From a virus: DNA of 23,811 bases. The translations under genes were made by a program, and so were the position numbers. The notes under the pieces were generated by a model. It was not told the DNA's origin. It ran no database searches and saw only the letters and a list, made by a program, of their open reading frames with translations. Location: IMG/VR virus record IMGVR_UViG_3300046387_000734, positions 1 through 23,811 of that record; one strand, written 5' to 3'. Of this stretch, positions 9,784 through 21,212 are shown piece by piece (the stretch's first letter is position 1; each line of letters begins with the position of its first letter).

Positions 9784-12700
9784 ATGCCACTTAATAAGTT
9801 AGAGAATTTTATAAAGAACACTGAGGGTAAAATTCTCTATGTAAATCCAAATGATATTGATGCGACCGATAGCATTACAAATCAGGGTAATTCATTAGCA
9901 CAACCGTTTAAGACAATCCAAAGGGCTTTACTAGAGTCTGCTAGATTTTCATATGTGGAAGGAAACAATAACGATTTAATTGAGAAGACAACAATATTAA
10001 TTTTTCCCGGAGAGCATGTAATTGATAATAGGCCTGGTTTCGCTGTAAAAAATGTAAGCAATTCTGCTGTTGCAGTATCCCCATCAGGTGCAGAAACAAC
10101 TGCTTCAGAAACTTTATCTCTTAACTTAACCTCTAATTTTGATCTGACACAAGAAGATAATTTACTCTACAAGTTTAATAGTATTAATGGTGGTGTGATT
10201 GTTCCTCGTGGTACATCATTAATTGGATTAGATTTAAGAAAAACAAAAATAAGACCTAAGTATATTCCTAATCCAACGGATAGTACAGTTGCAAATTCAG
10301 CACTATTTCGTCTAACTGGTACTTGTTACTTCTGGCAGTTCTCAATTTTTGATGGAGATGAGAGTGGACTTGTATTTACAGATCCATCAGATTTCTCTGC
10401 GAATAATCAATCAACACCAACATTCTCTCATCACAAACTAACTTGTTTTGAATATGCAGATGGTGTAAACATAGATACTCGATTTAATTTAACAGATTTA
10501 GACATATATTATAGTAAGTTATCAAATGCGTTTAGTGCAACATCAAGAACTATCAGAGAAGTTGATAGATTCCCTGCAAACTCACTAGGATTTGCTCCAC
10601 AAAGACCAGAATTTGAAATTGTTGGTGCATTCGCTTCAGATCCAATCAATGTTTCAACTATTATTTCTGGTGATGGATCAACTCCCGGAACTGTTGTTAC
10701 AGTTACAACTGCAACTCCACATGGATTAACAACAAACACACCAATCAAAATTAAGGGTGTGGATGTTTTTGATTACAACACATCAACTAAAGTTCAGAAT
10801 GTAACTAGCAGCACAGTATTTACATATCTTTTACCATTTGTACGAGATAATTTACCAGCAACTCCAAGTGCTTCATCTGCAACAGTAACTATTGAAACTG
10901 ATACTGTATCAGGTGCATCACCGTATATCTTCAACATATCTCTTCGTTCTGTATATGGAATGAATGGTATGCATGCAGACGGTGACAAGGCCACTGGTTT
11001 CAAATCAATGGTTGTTGCTCAGTTTACTGCAATCTCATTACAGAAAGATGACCGAGCATTTGTAAAGTATAATCAATCTTCGAGATTATATGAGGGTATT
11101 GATATTACAAAGGTTACAGGTGCAGAATTAGCATCTGGTGCATCTTCTCAAGATTCCTCAACAGTATATCATTTAGATTCTGATGCAGTTTATCGTCAGG
11201 AATTTGAAACAACTCATATTAAATTATCAAATGATGCAGTCATGCAGATTGTATCTGTATTTGCGATTGGATTTAATAAGCATTTTAACGCAGAGACAGG
11301 TGCTGATGCTTCAGTTACAAACTCTAACTCTAACTTTGGACAGTTTGCGATTGCATCTGATGGATTTAAGAAAGACGCATTTACAAAAGACAATAATGCA
11401 TATATTACTCAGGTAATTACTCCAAAAGCAATTACTTCAACAGAAACAAATATTGACTGGCAGAGATTAGATGTTGGATTAACTACATCCGTTGGTATCA
11501 CAAGTCATTTGTATCTATTTGGATTCAACACAAAAGATAATGTTCCACCCGTTGTAATTCAGGGTTATCGTGTTGGTGCAAAAACTAATGATGTTGTATC
11601 AGTTAACTTTGCAAGTGTAAATGATGGATCAAGTGTCACTGGTTATGGAACAAGTGATGCAAGTATATTGATGGTTGATAATGATATTTCAACTACAGGA
11701 ATTACATCCGCACTTGGTACAACATCTAGTATCAAGAAATATACAGTTCAATCAGGCCCCACATCTAACATTTTAACTATTGGAACTCATGAGTTACTAA
11801 CAGGAGAAAAGATAAGAGTTATAAGTGATGATGGTGATCTACCAGAAAATTTAACAGAGAACACAGTTTACTTTGCGATCAAACAATCAAGTACACAGAT
11901 TAAAATTGCAGCATCTAAAACTAATGCAACATTAGGAACTGCAATTGTAATTCATGGTGGTACAAAATTACAGATTGAAAGTCGTGTATCAGATAAAGAC
12001 TCTGGTGAAATTGGTTCACCAATTCAGTTTGACCCTGTAAACTCAAACTGGTTTATACATGCTGCAACTAATAATGATATCTACACTACAATGAATACAT
12101 TGGGTGTTGGTAATCTTGGAAACAATACTCCTGTATCATTTATTAAGAGAATTGCAGACGAAAGATCACTAGATGAAAAAGTATATAAGTTAAGAGTTGT
12201 AGTACCAAAAGAACTTACAAATGCAAAGAATCCAGAAGAAGGATTTATCATTCAAGAATCTAGTTCTACAAATGTAAGAAATGTCGGAGACTTCACCAGA
12301 ACTTCAATTACAGATCAAGATTATGACTTTGATCGTAATCCTAGATTTATAAGCACATGTTCTGCATCAGGAACTGCTATCACTGTAATCGCTGATGTAC
12401 CACATAATCTAAAGGCAGGTGAAAGAATATTCGTCAAGAATGTAACTGACAATAGTGGAACTGCAACAGGTATATTCAATAAAGGTTACAATGGATCATT
12501 CCTTGTAAGCACAATTGTTGACGATAAAACATTTACATATCCTACAACAGACACAGCAGGTGTAACACATACAGTTGGTAATTTTACAAATGATATATCA
12601 ACTCGTTCAACAACTCTACCAAGATTTGAAAGAAACAATTTACAGAGTAACTTCTATATCTATCGTAATGAAGTTATAAGTTCTTACATTAAGGATGTTC

Positions 12701-15636
12701 AAGATGGTATCTATCATCTATTTGTTCTTCATGCTGATAATGCAATTCCAACTGAATTTACAGGTGTTAAGTATGGTCAGAATGTAGTTGACTTGTATCC
12801 ACAGTTAGATCGAGATAATAATCATTCAAACCCACCTGCTTCAGTATCGTTTGGTAAGAGAGCTCCGATTGGTGATGTTTCAACAAATGATCTTAGAAAG
12901 AGTATTACAAGAGAGTCAACAGACAAACTCGTAAAAGATTTTGGATATGCCAAAATTATATCTGGTGTAAGTACAGGTGGTGCAATGGGAGTTGGACATA
13001 CAACTCTTACATTCGATAGACCACATGGATTTGGAAGTATCGTTACAGTCGCATCCATTGTTGGTGGATCAGGTTTAACAAATGGCACATATCATAATGT
13101 TAAATTACTTAATGAGGGAACCACAACTTGGGATGGTGCAACAGCAAAGGTCACAGTTGCAAGTAATGGAGTCACAGGTGTAGAAATAATTGAAGGAGGT
13201 TCTGGATTCACAGGTACAGAAACATTAGATATTGATAATTCATTCACAGGTGGATCAGGTGCTAAAGTTGTTATTGGAGTCACAGGTATCAGTACAAATA
13301 TAGGTGATTCATTACAAATCACTGGTGTTGGTACAGTCACAGATAATGTGGTAGCAATATCATCTGTTCGATCAACAACTTCAGTTTCAATTGCAGTCAC
13401 AACTGGTGATCCTGACATTATCACAGGTCAGTTTGCAATCAATCAGGGGCCAAAAGCAACGGTATCAAGTGTATCAACTCTTGATTCTACGACTGGAATA
13501 TCAACATTTACATTTACGAAGAGTCATGGATTTGTTGCAGGAAGTCCATTCAGAATATTAGATAATAGCAATAATAAGTTAGGAGACTTCTTTGTTAAGA
13601 CTGTCGTTGGTGTTAATACATTCTCAGCAATAACTACAGTTCAGTTAGCATCCCCAACTACAGTTCTTCCAAATGGAATGGCACCTGCCACTCTTACATC
13701 TGATAAGGAAGATGAAAATATTGGTTCAAGAGGACTTGCATTCTATGATAACGAGACATTTAATCTTGGTGCAAATGTAACCACAGGAACTTCTGTCGAG
13801 ATTAGTTTACCAAATGCGGGTATTGGAACCACAAGTAGATTTGAATTAGGTTCTTATATACAGGTTGGTGATGAGATAATGAGAGTTAAGTCTGCAACCA
13901 CTTCTGGTTCAGGCAATAATGAACTCACAGTGATTCGAGGTTCATTGGGAACAATTCAGGAAAGTCATTCAAGTGGTGAACAGGTTAAGAAAGTTAAACC
14001 AATACCAATTGAATTTAGACGACCATCTATTATTCGTGCATCTGGTCATACATTTGAATATCTTGGATTCGGGCCCGGTAACTACTCAACTGCATTACCA
14101 CAAGTTCAGGTCAGAACACTTACAGAAAGAGAAGAGTTCTTAACACAGTCACAAGAGAGATCATGTGGTACTGTTGTTTACACAGGTATGAACAACAGAG
14201 GTGACTTCTTTATTGGTAATAAGAGAGTTAGTTCTGCTACTGGTCAGGAGAGAACATTTGATGCACCGATTCCGACAGTTACAGGTGAAGATCCATCAAG
14301 ACTATCAGTTATATTTGATGAAGTAATTATTAAAGAAAGACTTGTTGTTGAAGGTGGTAAGTCAAGAACAATTCTATCTCAGTTTGACGGGCCAGTTACA
14401 TTCAACGAGGTTGTAAAAGTCAATGCTGCAATGACAGTTAATGACTTGATTAAGTTAAATGGAAACTTTGAGATAACAAATGATACTAACTCACATAGTC
14501 GTGATACAGGATCACTGATCACAGATGGTGGTATTGGAATCGAGAAGAACTTAAATGTTGGAGAGAACTTCAATGCTTTAGGTATATCAACTGTTAATAA
14601 TTTACGAGTTACAGGTCTGTCAACATTCACAGGTTTGATGGATATTGATGGTGGTGCTGAGATTGGTGCTTTAAAGATTGGTATCACCACAGTAAATATG
14701 CTTGGAACTATTGGTAATAATAATTTAATTATTGATTCTGCTGGCGGTACAACTACAATTCAAGATAATGTCGTTGTAAGTGGTGACTTTAGTTCAAGTG
14801 GTGCTACAAATGGTAACATCCGAATCGGTGTTACAGGTGATAATGAAATTGATACTTCATCAGGAAACTTAATAATAGATTCTGCAGGTGGTCTAGTTCA
14901 AGTTACTGATAATTTAGCAGTAACTGGTGCAATTACATCTTCAGATTTAACAAGTGGTAATATTAAAATTGGTGTCACAGGTGACAATGAAATTGATACA
15001 TCATCAGGAAACCTAACAATTGATTCTGCTGGTGGAACAACTACAGTTGACGATAACTTAAATATTACTGGAGACATTAACTTAACTGGTAGTTTCACAG
15101 GTTCATCAGTCACATTTAGTGGAAACTTAACTGCTGCTGGAGGAACACTTGGTAATGTTCAAGTTGGTTTAGCAGACAATCAAACAGTCACAACATCATC
15201 TGGTAAACTCATATTAGATGCTGCCACAAATGAAGTTGAGATTAATGCAGACATAGATCATAATGGTGCATTAAATACATCTGGTAACTTAGTATGTGGT
15301 GGGTCAGGAACATTTAGTGGTGATGTAATCGCATTCAGTTCTTCTGATTTGAATCTCAAAGAAAATTTAGTAAACATTGGTCAAGCAGTTGAAAGAGTCA
15401 ACAAATTAAATGGTTATACATTTACTTGGAAATCAGGGACAAATTTAGTAGATGAATATTTTGATGGTAAAGAAGATCTTGGTGTCATTGCACAAGAAGT
15501 TGAAGCACTTGGATTAGTTGGTCTGACAACCACCAGAGATAATGGTACAAAGGCAGTTCGTTATGATAGATTAGTTCCAATTCTTATTGAAGCGATTAAG
15601 GAACTAGATGCAAGGGTAAAATCTCTAGGAGGTTAA
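9784..15636 (+). CDS. Giant virion fibre protein with pectin-lyase-like start and S74 chaperone end (1950 aa)
   Basis: Residues 16-50 (ILYVNPNDIDATDS, then AQPFKTIQRALLE) look like the first coil of a right-handed beta-helix (pectin-lyase fold). Residues about 300-1290 contain at least five His-Gly-Leu-type beta modules, at PHGL 312, THEL 668, PHNL 873, PHGF 1080 and SHGF 1247. Residues 1647-1807 are 48-residue stalk repeats (NLIIDSAGG, NIKIGVTGDNEID). Residues 1853-1950 are an S74 intramolecular chaperone with Ser1854 and Lys1859 as the expected dyad. S74 proteins trimerise, then cleave and release the chaperone. The protein is likely a baseplate-attached fibre or tailspike that binds or degrades surface polysaccharide, though no catalytic residues are evident. 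The start follows a late box; a five-codon ORF (ATG 9777) overlaps it. Confidence 0.8.
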   Translation: MPLNKLENFIKNTEGKILYVNPNDIDATDSITNQGNSLAQPFKTIQRALLESARFSYVEGNNNDLIEKTTILIFPGEHVIDNRPGFAVKNVSNSAVAVSPSGAETTASETLSLNLTSNFDLTQEDNLLYKFNSINGGVIVPRGTSLIGLDLRKTKIRPKYIPNPTDSTVANSALFRLTGTCYFWQFSIFDGDESGLVFTDPSDFSANNQSTPTFSHHKLTCFEYADGVNIDTRFNLTDLDIYYSKLSNAFSATSRTIREVDRFPANSLGFAPQRPEFEIVGAFASDPINVSTIISGDGSTPGTVVTVTTATPHGLTTNTPIKIKGVDVFDYNTSTKVQNVTSSTVFTYLLPFVRDNLPATPSASSATVTIETDTVSGASPYIFNISLRSVYGMNGMHADGDKATGFKSMVVAQFTAISLQKDDRAFVKYNQSSRLYEGIDITKVTGAELASGASSQDSSTVYHLDSDAVYRQEFETTHIKLSNDAVMQIVSVFAIGFNKHFNAETGADASVTNSNSNFGQFAIASDGFKKDAFTKDNNAYITQVITPKAITSTETNIDWQRLDVGLTTSVGITSHLYLFGFNTKDNVPPVVIQGYRVGAKTNDVVSVNFASVNDGSSVTGYGTSDASILMVDNDISTTGITSALGTTSSIKKYTVQSGPTSNILTIGTHELLTGEKIRVISDDGDLPENLTENTVYFAIKQSSTQIKIAASKTNATLGTAIVIHGGTKLQIESRVSDKDSGEIGSPIQFDPVNSNWFIHAATNNDIYTTMNTLGVGNLGNNTPVSFIKRIADERSLDEKVYKLRVVVPKELTNAKNPEEGFIIQESSSTNVRNVGDFTRTSITDQDYDFDRNPRFISTCSASGTAITVIADVPHNLKAGERIFVKNVTDNSGTATGIFNKGYNGSFLVSTIVDDKTFTYPTTDTAGVTHTVGNFTNDISTRSTTLPRFERNNLQSNFYIYRNEVISSYIKDVQDGIYHLFVLHADNAIPTEFTGVKYGQNVVDLYPQLDRDNNHSNPPASVSFGKRAPIGDVSTNDLRKSITRESTDKLVKDFGYAKIISGVSTGGAMGVGHTTLTFDRPHGFGSIVTVASIVGGSGLTNGTYHNVKLLNEGTTTWDGATAKVTVASNGVTGVEIIEGGSGFTGTETLDIDNSFTGGSGAKVVIGVTGISTNIGDSLQITGVGTVTDNVVAISSVRSTTSVSIAVTTGDPDIITGQFAINQGPKATVSSVSTLDSTTGISTFTFTKSHGFVAGSPFRILDNSNNKLGDFFVKTVVGVNTFSAITTVQLASPTTVLPNGMAPATLTSDKEDENIGSRGLAFYDNETFNLGANVTTGTSVEISLPNAGIGTTSRFELGSYIQVGDEIMRVKSATTSGSGNNELTVIRGSLGTIQESHSSGEQVKKVKPIPIEFRRPSIIRASGHTFEYLGFGPGNYSTALPQVQVRTLTEREEFLTQSQERSCGTVVYTGMNNRGDFFIGNKRVSSATGQERTFDAPIPTVTGEDPSRLSVIFDEVIIKERLVVEGGKSRTILSQFDGPVTFNEVVKVNAAMTVNDLIKLNGNFEITNDTNSHSRDTGSLITDGGIGIEKNLNVGENFNALGISTVNNLRVTGLSTFTGLMDIDGGAEIGALKIGITTVNMLGTIGNNNLIIDSAGGTTTIQDNVVVSGDFSSSGATNGNIRIGVTGDNEIDTSSGNLIIDSAGGLVQVTDNLAVTGAITSSDLTSGNIKIGVTGDNEIDTSSGNLTIDSAGGTTTVDDNLNITGDINLTGSFTGSSVTFSGNLTAAGGTLGNVQVGLADNQTVTTSSGKLILDAATNEVEINADIDHNGALNTSGNLVCGGSGTFSGDVIAFSSSDLNLKENLVNIGQAVERVNKLNGYTFTWKSGTNLVDEYFDGKEDLGVIAQEVEALGLVGLTTTRDNGTKAVRYDRLVPILIEAIKELDARVKSLGG
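14722..15204 (+). repeat. Tandem 144-bp (48-aa) stalk repeats in the giant fibre gene
   Basis: Units begin at 14722, 14866 and 15010, each encoding NL(I/T)IDSAGG, then a variable part and GDNEIDTSSG. The third unit is 195 bp, with a 17-codon insertion; a diverged KLILDAA start follows at 15205. Units 1 and 2 are exactly 144 bp. Confidence 0.85.
15340..15633 (+). other. S74-type C-terminal intramolecular chaperone domain
   Basis: The domain starts SSDLNLKENL, with Ser1854 and Lys1859 five apart, as in the endosialidase-type Ser/Lys dyad. DLGVIAQEVEALG and AVRYDRLVPILIEAIKELDA are the other conserved blocks. Expected cleavage lies just before Ser1854 and would release about 97 residues. Confidence 0.85.
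15627..15632 (+). promoter_or_regulatory. Strong Shine-Dalgarno AGGAGG for the glycine-rich gene
   Basis: AGGAGG encodes the last Gly-Gly of the giant fibre (GGA GGT) and lies 4 nt before ATG 15637. It is the best SD in the window and suggests heavy translation of the adhesin-like gene. Confidence 0.7.
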
Positions 15637-16704: not shown

Positions 16705-17283
16705 ATGGCATTTGAGACTGATTTAATAAGAAGGTATAGTGGTGCTTTCTCGAAAGAGGACTGTATAAAAATAATAGATGGTATTAAATTCTTTGATAAA
16801 AACCATCTGCTCTTTTATGATAGAGAAAAACTTACGAGAGAAGATCATAAGACGGTAAATATTTCACATGATTATAATTTTTCAGCATCGAGTCGTATTT
16901 CCGAAGAAATTTTCCCCAAAATAAAACCTTGTGTAGATGAATATTTACAAGCATTTAATGTATTAGGTCTAAGAAAATTTTTACTACATGATTTAAAATT
17001 AAAACAAATTCCAGCAGGTGGTGGATTTCATGCTTGGCATTATGAAAATGGTGCATTGGATGTTGCTGCACGACAGTTCGTTGTTCAAATATATTTGAAT
17101 GATGATTTTGATGGAGGTGAAACAGAATTTTTATATCAACAAAGAAGAGAGGAAGCAGTTGCAGGGGATGTACTTATGTTCCCAGCCTCATTTACACATA
17201 CACATAGAGGTAATCCACCGTTAGGTGGTACTAAATATATCGCAACATCATGGGGGATGATTCAAAGTGAAAATAATTTTTAA
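16705..17283 (+). CDS. 2OG-Fe(II) oxygenase, prolyl-4-hydroxylase-like (192 aa)
   Basis: The family uses 2-oxoglutarate and O2 with Fe(II) to hydroxylate proteins or small molecules. Residues 108-114 read FHAWHYE, giving an H112-x-E114 metal pair (Glu, not the usual Asp). VVQIYLNDDFDGGETEFLY (residues 126-144) is the conserved core strand. GDVLMFPASFTHTHRGN (154-170) supplies the distal His, most likely H165, and GGTKYIATSW (174-183) carries K177, which likely binds 2-oxoglutarate. The whole double-stranded beta-helix is present, so the enzyme looks intact. It lies between an adhesin-like gene and a fibre gene, as in T4-like cyanophages. No clear SD precedes the ATG. The next gene starts 17 nt before its stop. 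Confidence 0.85.
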   Translation: MAFETDLIRRYSGAFSKEDCIKIIDGIKFFDKNHLLFYDREKLTREDHKTVNISHDYNFSASSRISEEIFPKIKPCVDEYLQAFNVLGLRKFLLHDLKLKQIPAGGGFHAWHYENGALDVAARQFVVQIYLNDDFDGGETEFLYQQRREEAVAGDVLMFPASFTHTHRGNPPLGGTKYIATSWGMIQSENNF

Positions 17284-18102: not shown

Positions 18103-18281
18103 AACTTAATCGTAATGAATTGATAGTTTTAAGAGGTGCTTTAAGTGTAAAGAAAATGTACAAGGGAATGAAACACGCACCACATGGAGTAATCATATGG
18201 GAAGACTGGATGCAAGATAGTTTGGATAGAATAAATGCTCATATAAAAGAATATCATCCTGATATACCCGATTGGAAATGA
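18099..18281 (+). CDS. Small protein of unknown function (60 aa)
   Basis: The ATG overlaps the previous TGA (ATGA), and its own TGA overlaps the next ATG in the same way. The sequence starts MKLNRNELIVLRGALSVKKM and continues with IIWEDWMQDSLDRINAHIKE, two likely helices rich in Trp, Lys and Glu. It may be a small helical protein co-translated with the two oxygenases. No motif is recognised. Confidence 0.6.
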   Translation: MKLNRNELIVLRGALSVKKMYKGMKHAPHGVIIWEDWMQDSLDRINAHIKEYHPDIPDWK

Positions 18282-18901
18282 AAGAAAACATATCAGCAGA
18301 AGCATACGAGACACCATTCCCACATTTAATTTTCCATAATTTTTACAATGAGGAAGAGTTGGAGTTGATATGGGAAGAACTAGATTTTTATACTAAACCT
18401 GATAAGTTATTAGATGTAAAAGAGTATCTAGGAGTTGCTGATAAAACAAATGCGAAAGCAATATATCTCGATTTAGTTTATCCAAAAAAATACAGAAAGT
18501 TATCTAATATTCTAACAGTTAATCGTAAAATATTTGAACCACAAGTCTTAGAACCATTTTCTAAACTACATGATTGTTGTATGCCCGCATATGATTGTAA
18601 TTACGATCATACAAAAGTAAGATACTATCATAATGGAGATTATTATGAACCCCATACTGATAACTTCTTTAGTTTCCTTGCTTTCTCATACTTTTATCGT
18701 GAACCAAAAAGGTTTGAGGGAGGTGAGTTGTTCTTCCCTAAATATAATTACTCGTTTAAATGTGACAATAACTCACTTATCATGATGCCAGCTTGGGTTG
18801 AGCATGGAGTCACTAAGGTCAGTATAAAAGATTCAGACTACTACGATGGATTCGGAAGATATGCCATCACGAGTTTCTTTGGTAATAAACAAACTGAATA
18901 A
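18278..18901 (+). CDS. Second 2OG-Fe(II) oxygenase (207 aa)
   Basis: I choose ATG 18278, which overlaps the previous stop as ATGA; the TTG at 18272 has no support. The N-terminus (TPFPHLIFHNFYNEEELELI) is the usual start of phage and bacterial small 2OG oxygenases. Residues 116-128 (YYHNGDYYEPHTD) give H126-T-D128; RFEGGELFFP (145-154) is the core strand; LIMMPAWVEHGVTKV (167-181) gives distal H176; GRYAIT (193-198) gives R194 for 2-oxoglutarate. All key residues are present in the standard HxD...H...R form, unlike the HxE form of the first oxygenase. The two differ in sequence and may have different substrates, possibly fibre residues or a small molecule. Confidence 0.83.
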   Translation: MKENISAEAYETPFPHLIFHNFYNEEELELIWEELDFYTKPDKLLDVKEYLGVADKTNAKAIYLDLVYPKKYRKLSNILTVNRKIFEPQVLEPFSKLHDCCMPAYDCNYDHTKVRYYHNGDYYEPHTDNFFSFLAFSYFYREPKRFEGGELFFPKYNYSFKCDNNSLIMMPAWVEHGVTKVSIKDSDYYDGFGRYAITSFFGNKQTE

Positions 18902-18923: not shown

Positions 18924-21212
18924 ATGTCTAATATAAGAAAGACTTTTAATTTCAGAGAGGGTGTACAGGTTGACGATGAGGCTCTTGTTGTAAAGGGAGA
19001 TCGAGTCGGAGTCGGAACTACATCCCCAGATGAAAGCCTTGATGTCAGAGGAAATGCAAAAGTCATAGGAATAATTACAGCAAACAACTTAGAAATAAGT
19101 GGTGTCTCTACATTCTCTCAAGTAAGTATTGGTTCAACTATATCTTTAGATTCTACAAGTGGTGTTGTAACTGCATCATCATTCAAGGGAGATGGTTCAA
19201 CTCTATCAAACTTACCCACATCACAATGGACAGATGTTAATACTGGTATTGGTGTAACACCGATATATGTGGATGGCAATGTTGGAATCGGAACCACAAA
19301 TCCTGAGAATGGCCTCCAAATAGGTGGAAATCCAAGTAACGGAGTTGGAGTTGGATTTAATACAGTCGGTGGTGTAGTAGCATCAGGTGTCATTACAGCA
19401 ACAACTTTTTCAGGTAATCTATCAGGGAATGTAACTGGGGATTTAACTGGAACTGCATCAAACGCAACTCAGGCTGCATCAGCAACTTTAGCAACAAATG
19501 CACAGGGGTTGACAGGCACACCAAGTATCACAGTAGCAAATATAAACTCAGCAGGGATAGGAACTATTGCAACTTTAAGTGTGACTGATTTCACAGTTCC
19601 CACACTAAAAGGTCATAGTACAATTCGATCAATACATGGAACTACAGTTACATTTATTGTGACTGTTGCAGCAAAGACTTCAGCACACCGATATAATGGT
19701 TCAGGTAGTTCAAATGGATATAAAATTGATGGTGTTGAATCGCCATTTATAACTCTCACACCCGGCCGTACTTATCGTTTTGACCAAGCAGACGGAACTA
19801 ACGCATTACATCCTTTAAGATTTTATTATGATGTAGATAAGACGACTGCATATACGACAGGTGTGACTGTAAACGGAACTCAAGGTTCAGCAGGTGCATA
19901 TACAGAGATAGTTGTAAGTGATACCACACCAACAGTCTTGCATTATCAATGCTCTAGTCATGCCAAGATGGGTAATGCTGTTCAAACTAACTCAAATATA
20001 TTAGACACAGAGCATAACTCAACAGTCAGAGGTTCAATGACTGCTACGAGTTTTGTAGGAGATGTAACTGGTAATGTGTCTGGTAATATAACTGGAACTG
20101 CTGGTACATTTACTACTCTTGATATAAATGGCGATGTAGATATTGATGGACACGCAGAACTTGATGCACTTAATGTTTCAGGTGTTGCGACTGCTACGAG
20201 TTTTGTAGGGCCACTTATAGGTAATGTAACTGGTAGCGTAACTGGTAATGTAGTTGGACTTGTTACATCATCAACCTCTAGTATTGGTGTTGCGACTGCT
20301 ACGAGTTTAGGAATAGGAACTAATATTGCCAATGCGGACATACAAATACATGATGCCACAGGTGCATCATCTATCGTAATTGGTAAAAATTCAGCAGTAG
20401 CGGATAATAATTTACAAATTAGGTATGGTGGAGGTGCATCAACATTTAGTGGTTTGGAAGCACTAGATATTATTAATCATGGCGATGGAAACTTTAATTA
20501 CTTTATAACTGGAATTAGTAGTTTCGTATGGCATAAAGGTAATGCAAATCCATTGATGGCTTTGTCTAGTACTGGTAACTTGGGTATTGGAATTACTCAA
20601 CCACAACATAGATTGTCAGTTGACGGAACATCTAAGGTCACAGGTGTTGCTACATTTACAAATGCTGTATTCATTGATGGTATATTGACAGTTAATGATG
20701 CAACAATAAGTAATCTTACTGGAAATGTTACTGGTAACATAAGAAATACGGTTGGTATGTCAACCTTTGCCGATCTAGAGGTTTCAAATAGTATTGGTAT
20801 AGGAATGACTGCTACAGGTAATTTCTTTAGTGTCTGTAGTTCAGCAGATAAAAGATTCTTTATTGATGCAAATGGTAATGTCGGTATTAAGACATCTACA
20901 ATTACAAGTGCTTTTGAATTAGATGTACGAGGAGACATCAAGGCACATCATGGACTTAAGGTTGGAAGTGGAAACCCATTATGTGCGGTTGATTTCTCAA
21001 ATCTAGTTGATATTGTAGAGGGTGGTTCGTCAAGAGCATCACTTTCATATATGATACCGCCAAGAGTTACTACTACTCAGAGGGATGCTTTAAGGGATAC
21101 AAGTGGTAACGCTTTGAGTGCTGACGAAAAAGGTGCATTTGTATTCAATACAACATTGAATAAGTTACAAGTCTGGACAGGTTCAGGATGGGAGACTATT
21201 ACAAGTTCATAA
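18924..21212 (+). CDS. Fibre-like virion protein with embedded cupredoxin-like domain (762 aa)
   Basis: The N-terminus (SNIRKTFNFREGVQVDDEAL) is an attachment module known from cyanophage structural proteins. 'VGIGTTxP..LxVxG' stalk units occur near residues 28, 120, 553 and 653. GNVTG repeats occur near 162-180, 371-394 and 420-445. Residues about 253-353 form a domain with ALHPLRF and HYQCSSHAKMGNA, giving H296, C343, H346 and M349 as the four ligands of a type-1 copper site. The C-terminus (PPRVTTTQRDALRD, then VFNTTLNKLQVWTGSGWE) is the common fibre-tip cap. It is probably a long trimeric fibre. Whether copper is bound is unknown. A late box precedes it and a terminator follows 77 nt after its stop. 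Confidence 0.8.
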   Translation: MSNIRKTFNFREGVQVDDEALVVKGDRVGVGTTSPDESLDVRGNAKVIGIITANNLEISGVSTFSQVSIGSTISLDSTSGVVTASSFKGDGSTLSNLPTSQWTDVNTGIGVTPIYVDGNVGIGTTNPENGLQIGGNPSNGVGVGFNTVGGVVASGVITATTFSGNLSGNVTGDLTGTASNATQAASATLATNAQGLTGTPSITVANINSAGIGTIATLSVTDFTVPTLKGHSTIRSIHGTTVTFIVTVAAKTSAHRYNGSGSSNGYKIDGVESPFITLTPGRTYRFDQADGTNALHPLRFYYDVDKTTAYTTGVTVNGTQGSAGAYTEIVVSDTTPTVLHYQCSSHAKMGNAVQTNSNILDTEHNSTVRGSMTATSFVGDVTGNVSGNITGTAGTFTTLDINGDVDIDGHAELDALNVSGVATATSFVGPLIGNVTGSVTGNVVGLVTSSTSSIGVATATSLGIGTNIANADIQIHDATGASSIVIGKNSAVADNNLQIRYGGGASTFSGLEALDIINHGDGNFNYFITGISSFVWHKGNANPLMALSSTGNLGIGITQPQHRLSVDGTSKVTGVATFTNAVFIDGILTVNDATISNLTGNVTGNIRNTVGMSTFADLEVSNSIGIGMTATGNFFSVCSSADKRFFIDANGNVGIKTSTITSAFELDVRGDIKAHHGLKVGSGNPLCAVDFSNLVDIVEGGSSRASLSYMIPPRVTTTQRDALRDTSGNALSADEKGAFVFNTTLNKLQVWTGSGWETITSS
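19680..19982 (+). other. Cupredoxin-like domain with intact His-Cys-His-Met set
   Basis: Encoded residues 253-353 read HRYNGSGSSNGYKIDG, TPGRTYRFDQAD, ALHPLRFYYDVD, GSAGAYTEIVVSD and HYQCSSHAKMGNA. The C-x2-H-x2-M loop with an upstream His at 296 matches plastocyanin-type metal loops. Domains like this recur in marine phage structural proteins. The fold is inferred from motif order. Confidence 0.72.
20039..20308 (+). repeat. Direct repeats GACTGCTACGAGTTT in fibre gene
   Basis: Exact copies start at 20039, 20189 and 20294. Copies 1 and 2 also share the following TTGTAGG. Copies 2 and 3 also share the preceding GGTGTTGC. Each encodes part of a (V)ATATS stalk unit, so these repeats are conserved in DNA as well as protein. 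Confidence 0.8.

What the first reader, a model, noticed from the sequence alone, without database searches (positions are those of the whole stretch)
19680..19982. Fibre protein with an intact type-1-copper-like ligand set (H296, C343, H346, M349)
The domain reads ALHPLRF ... HYQCSSHAKMG, i.e. an upstream His and C-x2-H-x2-M, the order used by plastocyanin-type cupredoxins. It sits in the middle of a stalk made of unrelated fibre repeats. A metal site on a virion fibre could act in stability, redox sensing at the host surface or receptor binding. A purely structural relic is possible, but all four ligand positions are kept.
Basis: partly seen in the sequence, partly recalled or inferred. Interest (0 to 1): 0.75.

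Follow-up and report, generated by a model that had tools for sequence, protein, structure and literature searches.

The report
Copper-protein domain in marine phage fibres
A tail-fibre protein of an ocean phage carries a small domain related to the blue-copper proteins of photosynthesis and denitrification, with all four copper-holding residues intact, and the same domain sits in tail and baseplate proteins of hundreds of sequenced marine phages, so many ocean viruses may carry copper centres on their tails.

Summary
Residues about 240-357 of the 762-aa fibre (nt 19641-19994) form a cupredoxin-fold domain with an intact type-1-copper ligand set: H296, C343, H346, M349, in the C-x2-H-x2-M spacing of amicyanin. 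AlphaFold2 models the core at pLDDT 93-98, and its best PDB matches are copper proteins (rusticyanin, laccases, and the N-terminal domain of a three-domain nitrite reductase). All four residues are invariant in 41 diverse domains (mean pairwise identity 55%). They are also invariant among 99 distinct homologues, except one bacterial copy lacking Met. The family includes the C-terminal domain of the gp9 long-tail-fibre connector: 334 phage records match, nearly all named as marine phages or cyanophages. Profiles of these relatives retrieve almost only type-1 copper proteins from the PDB. Within single phages the site is kept whole or lost: 30 copies complete, 11 with none, 2 with only the first His, none with other partial sets. 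I conclude that this is a cupredoxin module whose site is maintained for metal binding, probably copper. Metal occupancy and biological role (stability, redox response at the host surface, copper-dependent attachment) are untested. I found no description of it in the open literature I could search.

The parts
18924..21212 (+). Tail-fibre gene, 762 aa, holding the domain
   Evidence: Single open frame; PHROG tail fiber phrog_30742 (5.6e-80) and tail protein phrog_3269
19641..19994 (+). Cupredoxin-fold domain, aa about 240-357, eight strands
   Evidence: AF2 block pLDDT 93-98 over the core; Foldseek/VIA best hits are copper proteins; profile links to PF00127-type proteins through relatives
19809..19811 (+). 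H296, first His ligand, just before strand 4; in an 'HP' motif as at the type-1 site of multicopper oxidases
   Evidence: Invariant in 41/41 and 99/99; profile alignment to a multicopper oxidase HPIHLH motif (weak)
19950..19952 (+). C343, thiolate ligand, last residue of strand 7; only Cys of the domain
   Evidence: Invariant in 99/99; codons TGC and TGT both used; C list of the protein
19959..19961 (+). H346, second His ligand, strand 7-8 loop
   Evidence: Invariant in 99/99; codons CAT and CAC both used
19968..19970 (+). M349, axial ligand, strand 7-8 loop
   Evidence: 98/99; one bacterial copy has Ala
19400..19560 (+). Stalk repeats upstream (GNLSGNVTGDLTGTASNATQ...)
   Evidence: Read from the translation
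20040..20260 (+). Stalk repeats downstream (SFVGDVTGNVSGNITG...)
   Evidence: Read from the translation
20950..21212 (+). C-terminal region of the fibre (VDFSNLVDIVEGG...VWTGSGWETI)
   Evidence: Lies in the region 20010-21209 used as an independent query; 12 newly fetched loci chosen that way carry the domain with all four ligands

Best explanation
The stretch is a cupredoxin module inserted in the stalk of a tail fibre. The chain folds into an eight-stranded sandwich that brings H296, C343, H346 and M349 together as a type-1-copper site. Each chain most likely binds one copper ion; if the fibre is a trimer, as tail fibres usually are, it holds three. The site is maintained by selection for metal binding rather than for the fold. 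My preferred role is a metal-stabilised, possibly redox-responsive hinge or adhesion module at the fibre/baseplate. Shown by computation: homology to cupredoxins, ligand conservation, whole-or-none loss, spread through marine phage tail and baseplate proteins. Inferred: copper as the metal, occupancy in virions, and the role. My odds: cupredoxin homologue with intact site 0.95; binds copper in the virion about 0.65; role stability about 0.35, redox response at the host surface about 0.25, copper-dependent attachment about 0.15, other 0.25.
For: AF2 model from 41 homologues, core pLDDT 93-98, pTM 0.81, eight strands with the ligands at cupredoxin positions. Foldseek: all seven hits under 1e-3 are rusticyanin and almost all of the next 43 are laccases, other multicopper oxidases, nitrite reductase or pseudoazurin. 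VIA: best Z 9.4, rmsd 3.2, 106 aligned, on the N-terminal domain of Hyphomicrobium nitrite reductase. Quartet conservation: 41/41, 98/99, gp9 set 22/22, independent N- and C-terminal anchor sets all intact. Copies in 19 phage records: 30 full, 11 none, 2 first His only. Relatives' profiles: A4 retrieves amicyanin at 7e-5, its first 22 PDB hits all copper proteins; A3 retrieves nitrite reductase at 3e-4 and rusticyanin with all four ligands aligned. A1 to A4 1.5e-19; A4 to PF00127 proteins 4e-7. Copper-bind matches inside virion proteins of P-SSM2, S-MbCM7 and P-TIM68 overlap hits of this family.
Against: The window's own domain has no Pfam match above cut-off, and its direct profile match to PDB cupredoxins is weak (0.044 and 0.078); the strong links run through relatives. 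The structural Z of 9.4 is only moderately above background. Ligand geometry could not be measured. No metal data exist here. Free copper in seawater and in cytoplasm is very low (general knowledge), so loading in the virion is not assured. Site-less copies with related sequence persist in virion proteins, so the module can serve without metal.
Confidence: 0.66

Rival explanations
1. Cupredoxin fold and site are real, but the metal is purely structural: it locks the ligand loop and stiffens the stalk module, with no redox or receptor role.
For: The domain occurs in many different tail and baseplate proteins and positions, which fits a generic building block.
Against: Site-less copies persist in the same kind of virion proteins, so the fold can do without the site; the whole His-Cys-His-Met set, not a looser set, is kept.
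Confidence: 0.3
2. The site binds a metal other than copper (Zn, Fe) or none in vivo; the residues are kept for local packing.
For: Cupredoxin sites can bind other divalent metals in vitro (general knowledge); the T4 fibre tip binds iron through HxH motifs (PMC11705849).
Against: A conserved lone Cys with two His and a Met in this spacing is the copper set; profiles retrieve type-1 copper proteins, not zinc or iron proteins.
Confidence: 0.2
3. An ordinary Ig-like/beta-sandwich fibre domain in which the four residues are a coincidence.
For: Beta-sandwich domains are common in phage fibres; no curated family match above cut-off for the window protein.
Against: Four pre-named residues invariant across 25-93% pairwise identity, whole-or-none loss, fold and profile matches specific to copper proteins.
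Confidence: 0.03
4. Copper-dependent attachment: the loaded site, or its redox state, helps the phage dock on the host, in the manner proposed for iron in fibres (Ferrojan/Trojan horse).
For: Location in fibres and in the long-tail-fibre connector; metal in fibres is an existing proposal for marine phages (PMC11705849).
Against: No receptor evidence; the domain is mid-stalk here and C-terminal in gp9, not obviously at a tip; hosts are diverse (cyanobacteria, Pelagibacter, Methylophilales).
Confidence: 0.15

Closest known systems
Plastocyanin/amicyanin/pseudoazurin (Pfam PF00127 Copper-bind)
   Same: His...Cys-x2-His-x2-Met order; amicyanin has the same C-x2-H-x2-M spacing; relatives' profiles match
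   Different: Those are free periplasmic or lumenal electron carriers; this is a module inside a fibre, with 'HP' after the first His where plastocyanin has 'HN'; the window copy itself does not reach the Pfam cut-off
Rusticyanin
   Same: Best Foldseek hit of the model (2e-4); relatives' profile aligns all four ligands
   Different: Longer, acid-stable soluble protein; loop spacings differ; about 12% identity
N-terminal cupredoxin domain of three-domain nitrite reductase (2dv6, 6tfo)
   Same: Best VIA match for both models (Z 9.4 and 7.5); also a cupredoxin module inside a larger protein
   Different: Part of an enzyme, not a virion
Pfam PF25489 (At5g54830-like domain)
   Same: A bacterial relative hits it at 6e-10, above cut-off; phage copies hit it weakly
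   Different: Named for a plant protein; I know of no assigned function; the phage copies stay below cut-off
Cyanophage plastocyanin (PetE) as a host-derived metabolic gene
   Same: Also a phage-encoded cupredoxin; six of fifteen phages searched encode a 110-131 aa PF00127 protein besides the virion domain
   Different: Soluble protein for host photosynthesis, not a virion part
Iron-binding HxH motifs of T4 gp37 and alterophage fibres
   Same: Metal site on a phage fibre (PMC11705849)
   Different: Octahedral iron by paired His; other fold, other ligands

Membership tests
Cupredoxin superfamily (type-1 copper) | Greek-key beta sandwich of about eight strands | tested here: met
   AF2 model, eight strands, core pLDDT 93-98; best PDB matches are copper proteins. 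Predicted, not solved
Cupredoxin superfamily (type-1 copper) | Ligands His, Cys, His, Met in order; Cys ends strand 7; His and Met in the 7-8 loop | tested here: met
   H296, C343, H346, M349 against the model's strands; invariant set
Cupredoxin superfamily (type-1 copper) | Ligands within bonding distance of one metal | not testable with these tools
   Model coordinates are not returned
Cupredoxin superfamily (type-1 copper) | Sequence homology to known members | tested here: met
   Through family relatives: A1-A4 1.5e-19, A4-PF00127 4e-7, A4 versus amicyanin 7e-5. Direct A1 match weak: PDB 0.044 and 0.078, hhalign to A2 2.7e-4 at probability 41%
Cupredoxin superfamily (type-1 copper) | Binds copper with type-1 spectroscopy | not testable with these tools
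   Needs purified protein
Pfam PF00127 Copper-bind (plastocyanin/azurin family) | Score above the gathering cut-off | tested here: not met
   No match for the window protein; closest phage relative 20.8 bits against cut-off 21.2. So it is not filed as a PF00127 member
Multicopper oxidase | HxH motifs for type-2/3 copper and several cupredoxin domains | tested here: not met
   HPLRF instead of HPxHxH after the first ligand; one matched domain in the protein
PHROG tail fibre families | Match to phrog_30742 and phrog_3269 | tested here: met
   5.6e-80 and 7e-44

The most novel reading that the evidence does not exclude
Most marine T4-like phages, and some podophages, carry redox-active type-1-like copper centres on the tail (gp9 connector, fibres, gp7), which act in virion stability or as a redox-dependent step of attachment, and which put a copper pool in ocean virus particles.
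Probability: 0.4. Interest if true: 0.87.

Novelty: new variant of a known kind. Interest (0 to 1): 0.7.

Why it matters
Electron-transfer copper domains are known as soluble carriers or enzyme parts; as a conserved part of virus particles I found none described. If the sites are loaded, a very abundant group of ocean viruses carries copper and possibly redox chemistry on the tail. That would bear on trace-metal budgets (as argued for iron in fibres), on virion decay in sunlit water, and on the light dependence of adsorption reported for some cyanophages (the last link is speculation). It is directly testable with existing isolates such as P-SSM2, Syn33 or S-TIM5.

Tried and rejected
Direct sequence searches of the window domain against the PDB and Pfam gave only chance matches or nothing; the link needed profiles of relatives. 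Ig-like alternatives (Big_15, Ig_C17orf99) appeared only as weak matches. Multicopper oxidase was rejected for lack of the HxH motifs. Bacterial origin: among 150 genomes of the Gallionellaceae order only the starting genome matched; the other strong genome-contig hits (L082-L086) resemble the phage family closely and sit in single-cell or metagenome assemblies, so they are likely phage sequence (inference); origin unresolved. Plasmids: no match. hhalign of A1 with six PF00127 proteins gave 2.7e-4 but only 41% probability. In the amicyanin alignment the first His is two positions out of register; the rusticyanin alignment is in register. Paper searches found no virion cupredoxin; subscription papers and bioRxiv were not searchable.

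Full report
Observation. The window is a 23,811-base virus record with T4-type tail genes. DNA matches are to marine Synechococcus and Prochlorococcus myophages but the best ones cover only about 2% of it. The domain occurs once in the record.

Conservation. A viral-contig scan gave 80 loci. An alignment of 41 diverse domains (A1; pairwise identity 25-93%, mean 55%) has 12 invariant columns of 132, among them all four named residues (hypergeometric 4e-5). Among 99 distinct spanning homologues from all sources His, Cys and His are 100% conserved and Met 99%, while their synonymous codons alternate. The Cys-His and His-Met spacings vary a little (2/2 in 94, 2/3 in 3, 4/2 in 1), as in cupredoxin ligand loops. 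Because pattern scans can favour conserved residues, I repeated the test with loci chosen by other parts of the fibre. The N-terminal part gave 7 distinct domains, all intact, and the C-terminal part gave 12 newly fetched loci, all intact. Only 11 of 79 loci chosen by the N-terminus had the domain, so it looks like a swappable module (some of those loci are truncated).

Fold. AF2 from A1 gave pLDDT 88 overall and block means of 93-98 over the core, with eight strands. H296 stands just before strand 4, C343 ends strand 7, and H346 and M349 lie in the 7-8 loop, which is the cupredoxin arrangement (general knowledge). Foldseek's only PDB matches under 1e-3 are rusticyanin. VIA gives Z 9.4, rmsd 3.2 over 106 residues, for the N-terminal domain of a three-domain nitrite reductase, then laccases and rusticyanin. 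BFVD shows the same fold in many cyanophage virion proteins and in giant-virus 'beta-sandwich' proteins.

Family. tblastn of the window domain finds 122 phage records, under cyanophage, Methylophilales-phage, pelagiphage, marine-virus, uncultured or unassigned seawater phage names. tblastn of the C-terminal domain of a cyanophage gp9 finds 334. gp9 of these phages has the T4 gp9/10 N-terminal domain plus this domain at its C-terminus; 22 such domains, including annotated connectors from several genera, keep all four ligands. Further copies lie in fibres, gp7-like baseplate proteins, a P-SSM2 tail spike protein and podophage tail-region genes. A1 and the gp9 profile A4 are homologous (hhalign 1.5e-19).

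Link to copper proteins. A4 retrieves amicyanin at 7e-5, and its first 22 PDB hits are all copper proteins. A3, made from divergent fibre, spike and gp9 copies, retrieves nitrite reductase, amicyanin, rusticyanin and plastocyanin, with rusticyanin's four ligands aligned. hhalign of A4 with PF00127 proteins gives 4e-7. Pfam Copper-bind and Cupredoxin_1 match some phage copies at 1e-4 to 1e-3, just below cut-off.

Site kept or lost as a unit. In 19 phage records 43 distinct copies were classified: 30 with all four ligands, 11 with none, 2 with the first His only, none with C-H-M but no first His. The lowest-scoring site-less copies (under about 13 bits) may not be true homologues; seven copies with no ligands score 18-36 bits. 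Many site-less copies lie in very long baseplate-type proteins. So the fold can probably persist without the site, and where the site is kept it is kept whole, which argues for metal binding rather than packing.

Mechanism. Shown: homology, predicted fold, ligand conservation, distribution. Inferred: copper as ligand, one per chain, and a role in stability or redox-dependent attachment. I rank a metal-stabilised and possibly redox-responsive module first, but the role is open.

Novelty. The fold is known and the place is new as far as the searched open literature goes. The nearest precedent is iron held by HxH motifs in fibre tips (PMC11705849), a different site. Soluble plastocyanin-type proteins in cyanophages are separate genes in the same genomes.

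Noticed in passing
window 16705-17283 and 18272-18901: Two 2OG-Fe(II) oxygenase genes (PF13640) lie close upstream of the fibre gene, between fibre genes; they could hydroxylate fibre residues.
   Followed up: no
window 9784-15636: 1950-aa protein ending in a Peptidase_S74 intramolecular chaperone, likely another fibre.
   Followed up: no
window 19686-19688 (H255): A fifth His, H255, in the strand 1-2 insertion is conserved in 37/37 domains of the close family; role unknown.
   Followed up: partly
L226-L229: A Gallionellaceae MAG has four copies of a 432-443 aa protein with a PF25489-type cupredoxin domain, one with Ala for the axial Met.
   Followed up: partly
L135, L137, L234, L235, L237: Related domains without the C-H-M ligands in very long baseplate-type proteins of cyanophages, natural site-less comparisons.
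   Followed up: partly
BFVD A0A481Z6J5, A0A481Z7Q7, A0A481YY19: Giant-virus (Pithovirus and Marseillevirus LCPAC/LCMAC) 'beta-sandwich proteins' match the model's fold; ligands not checked.
   Followed up: no
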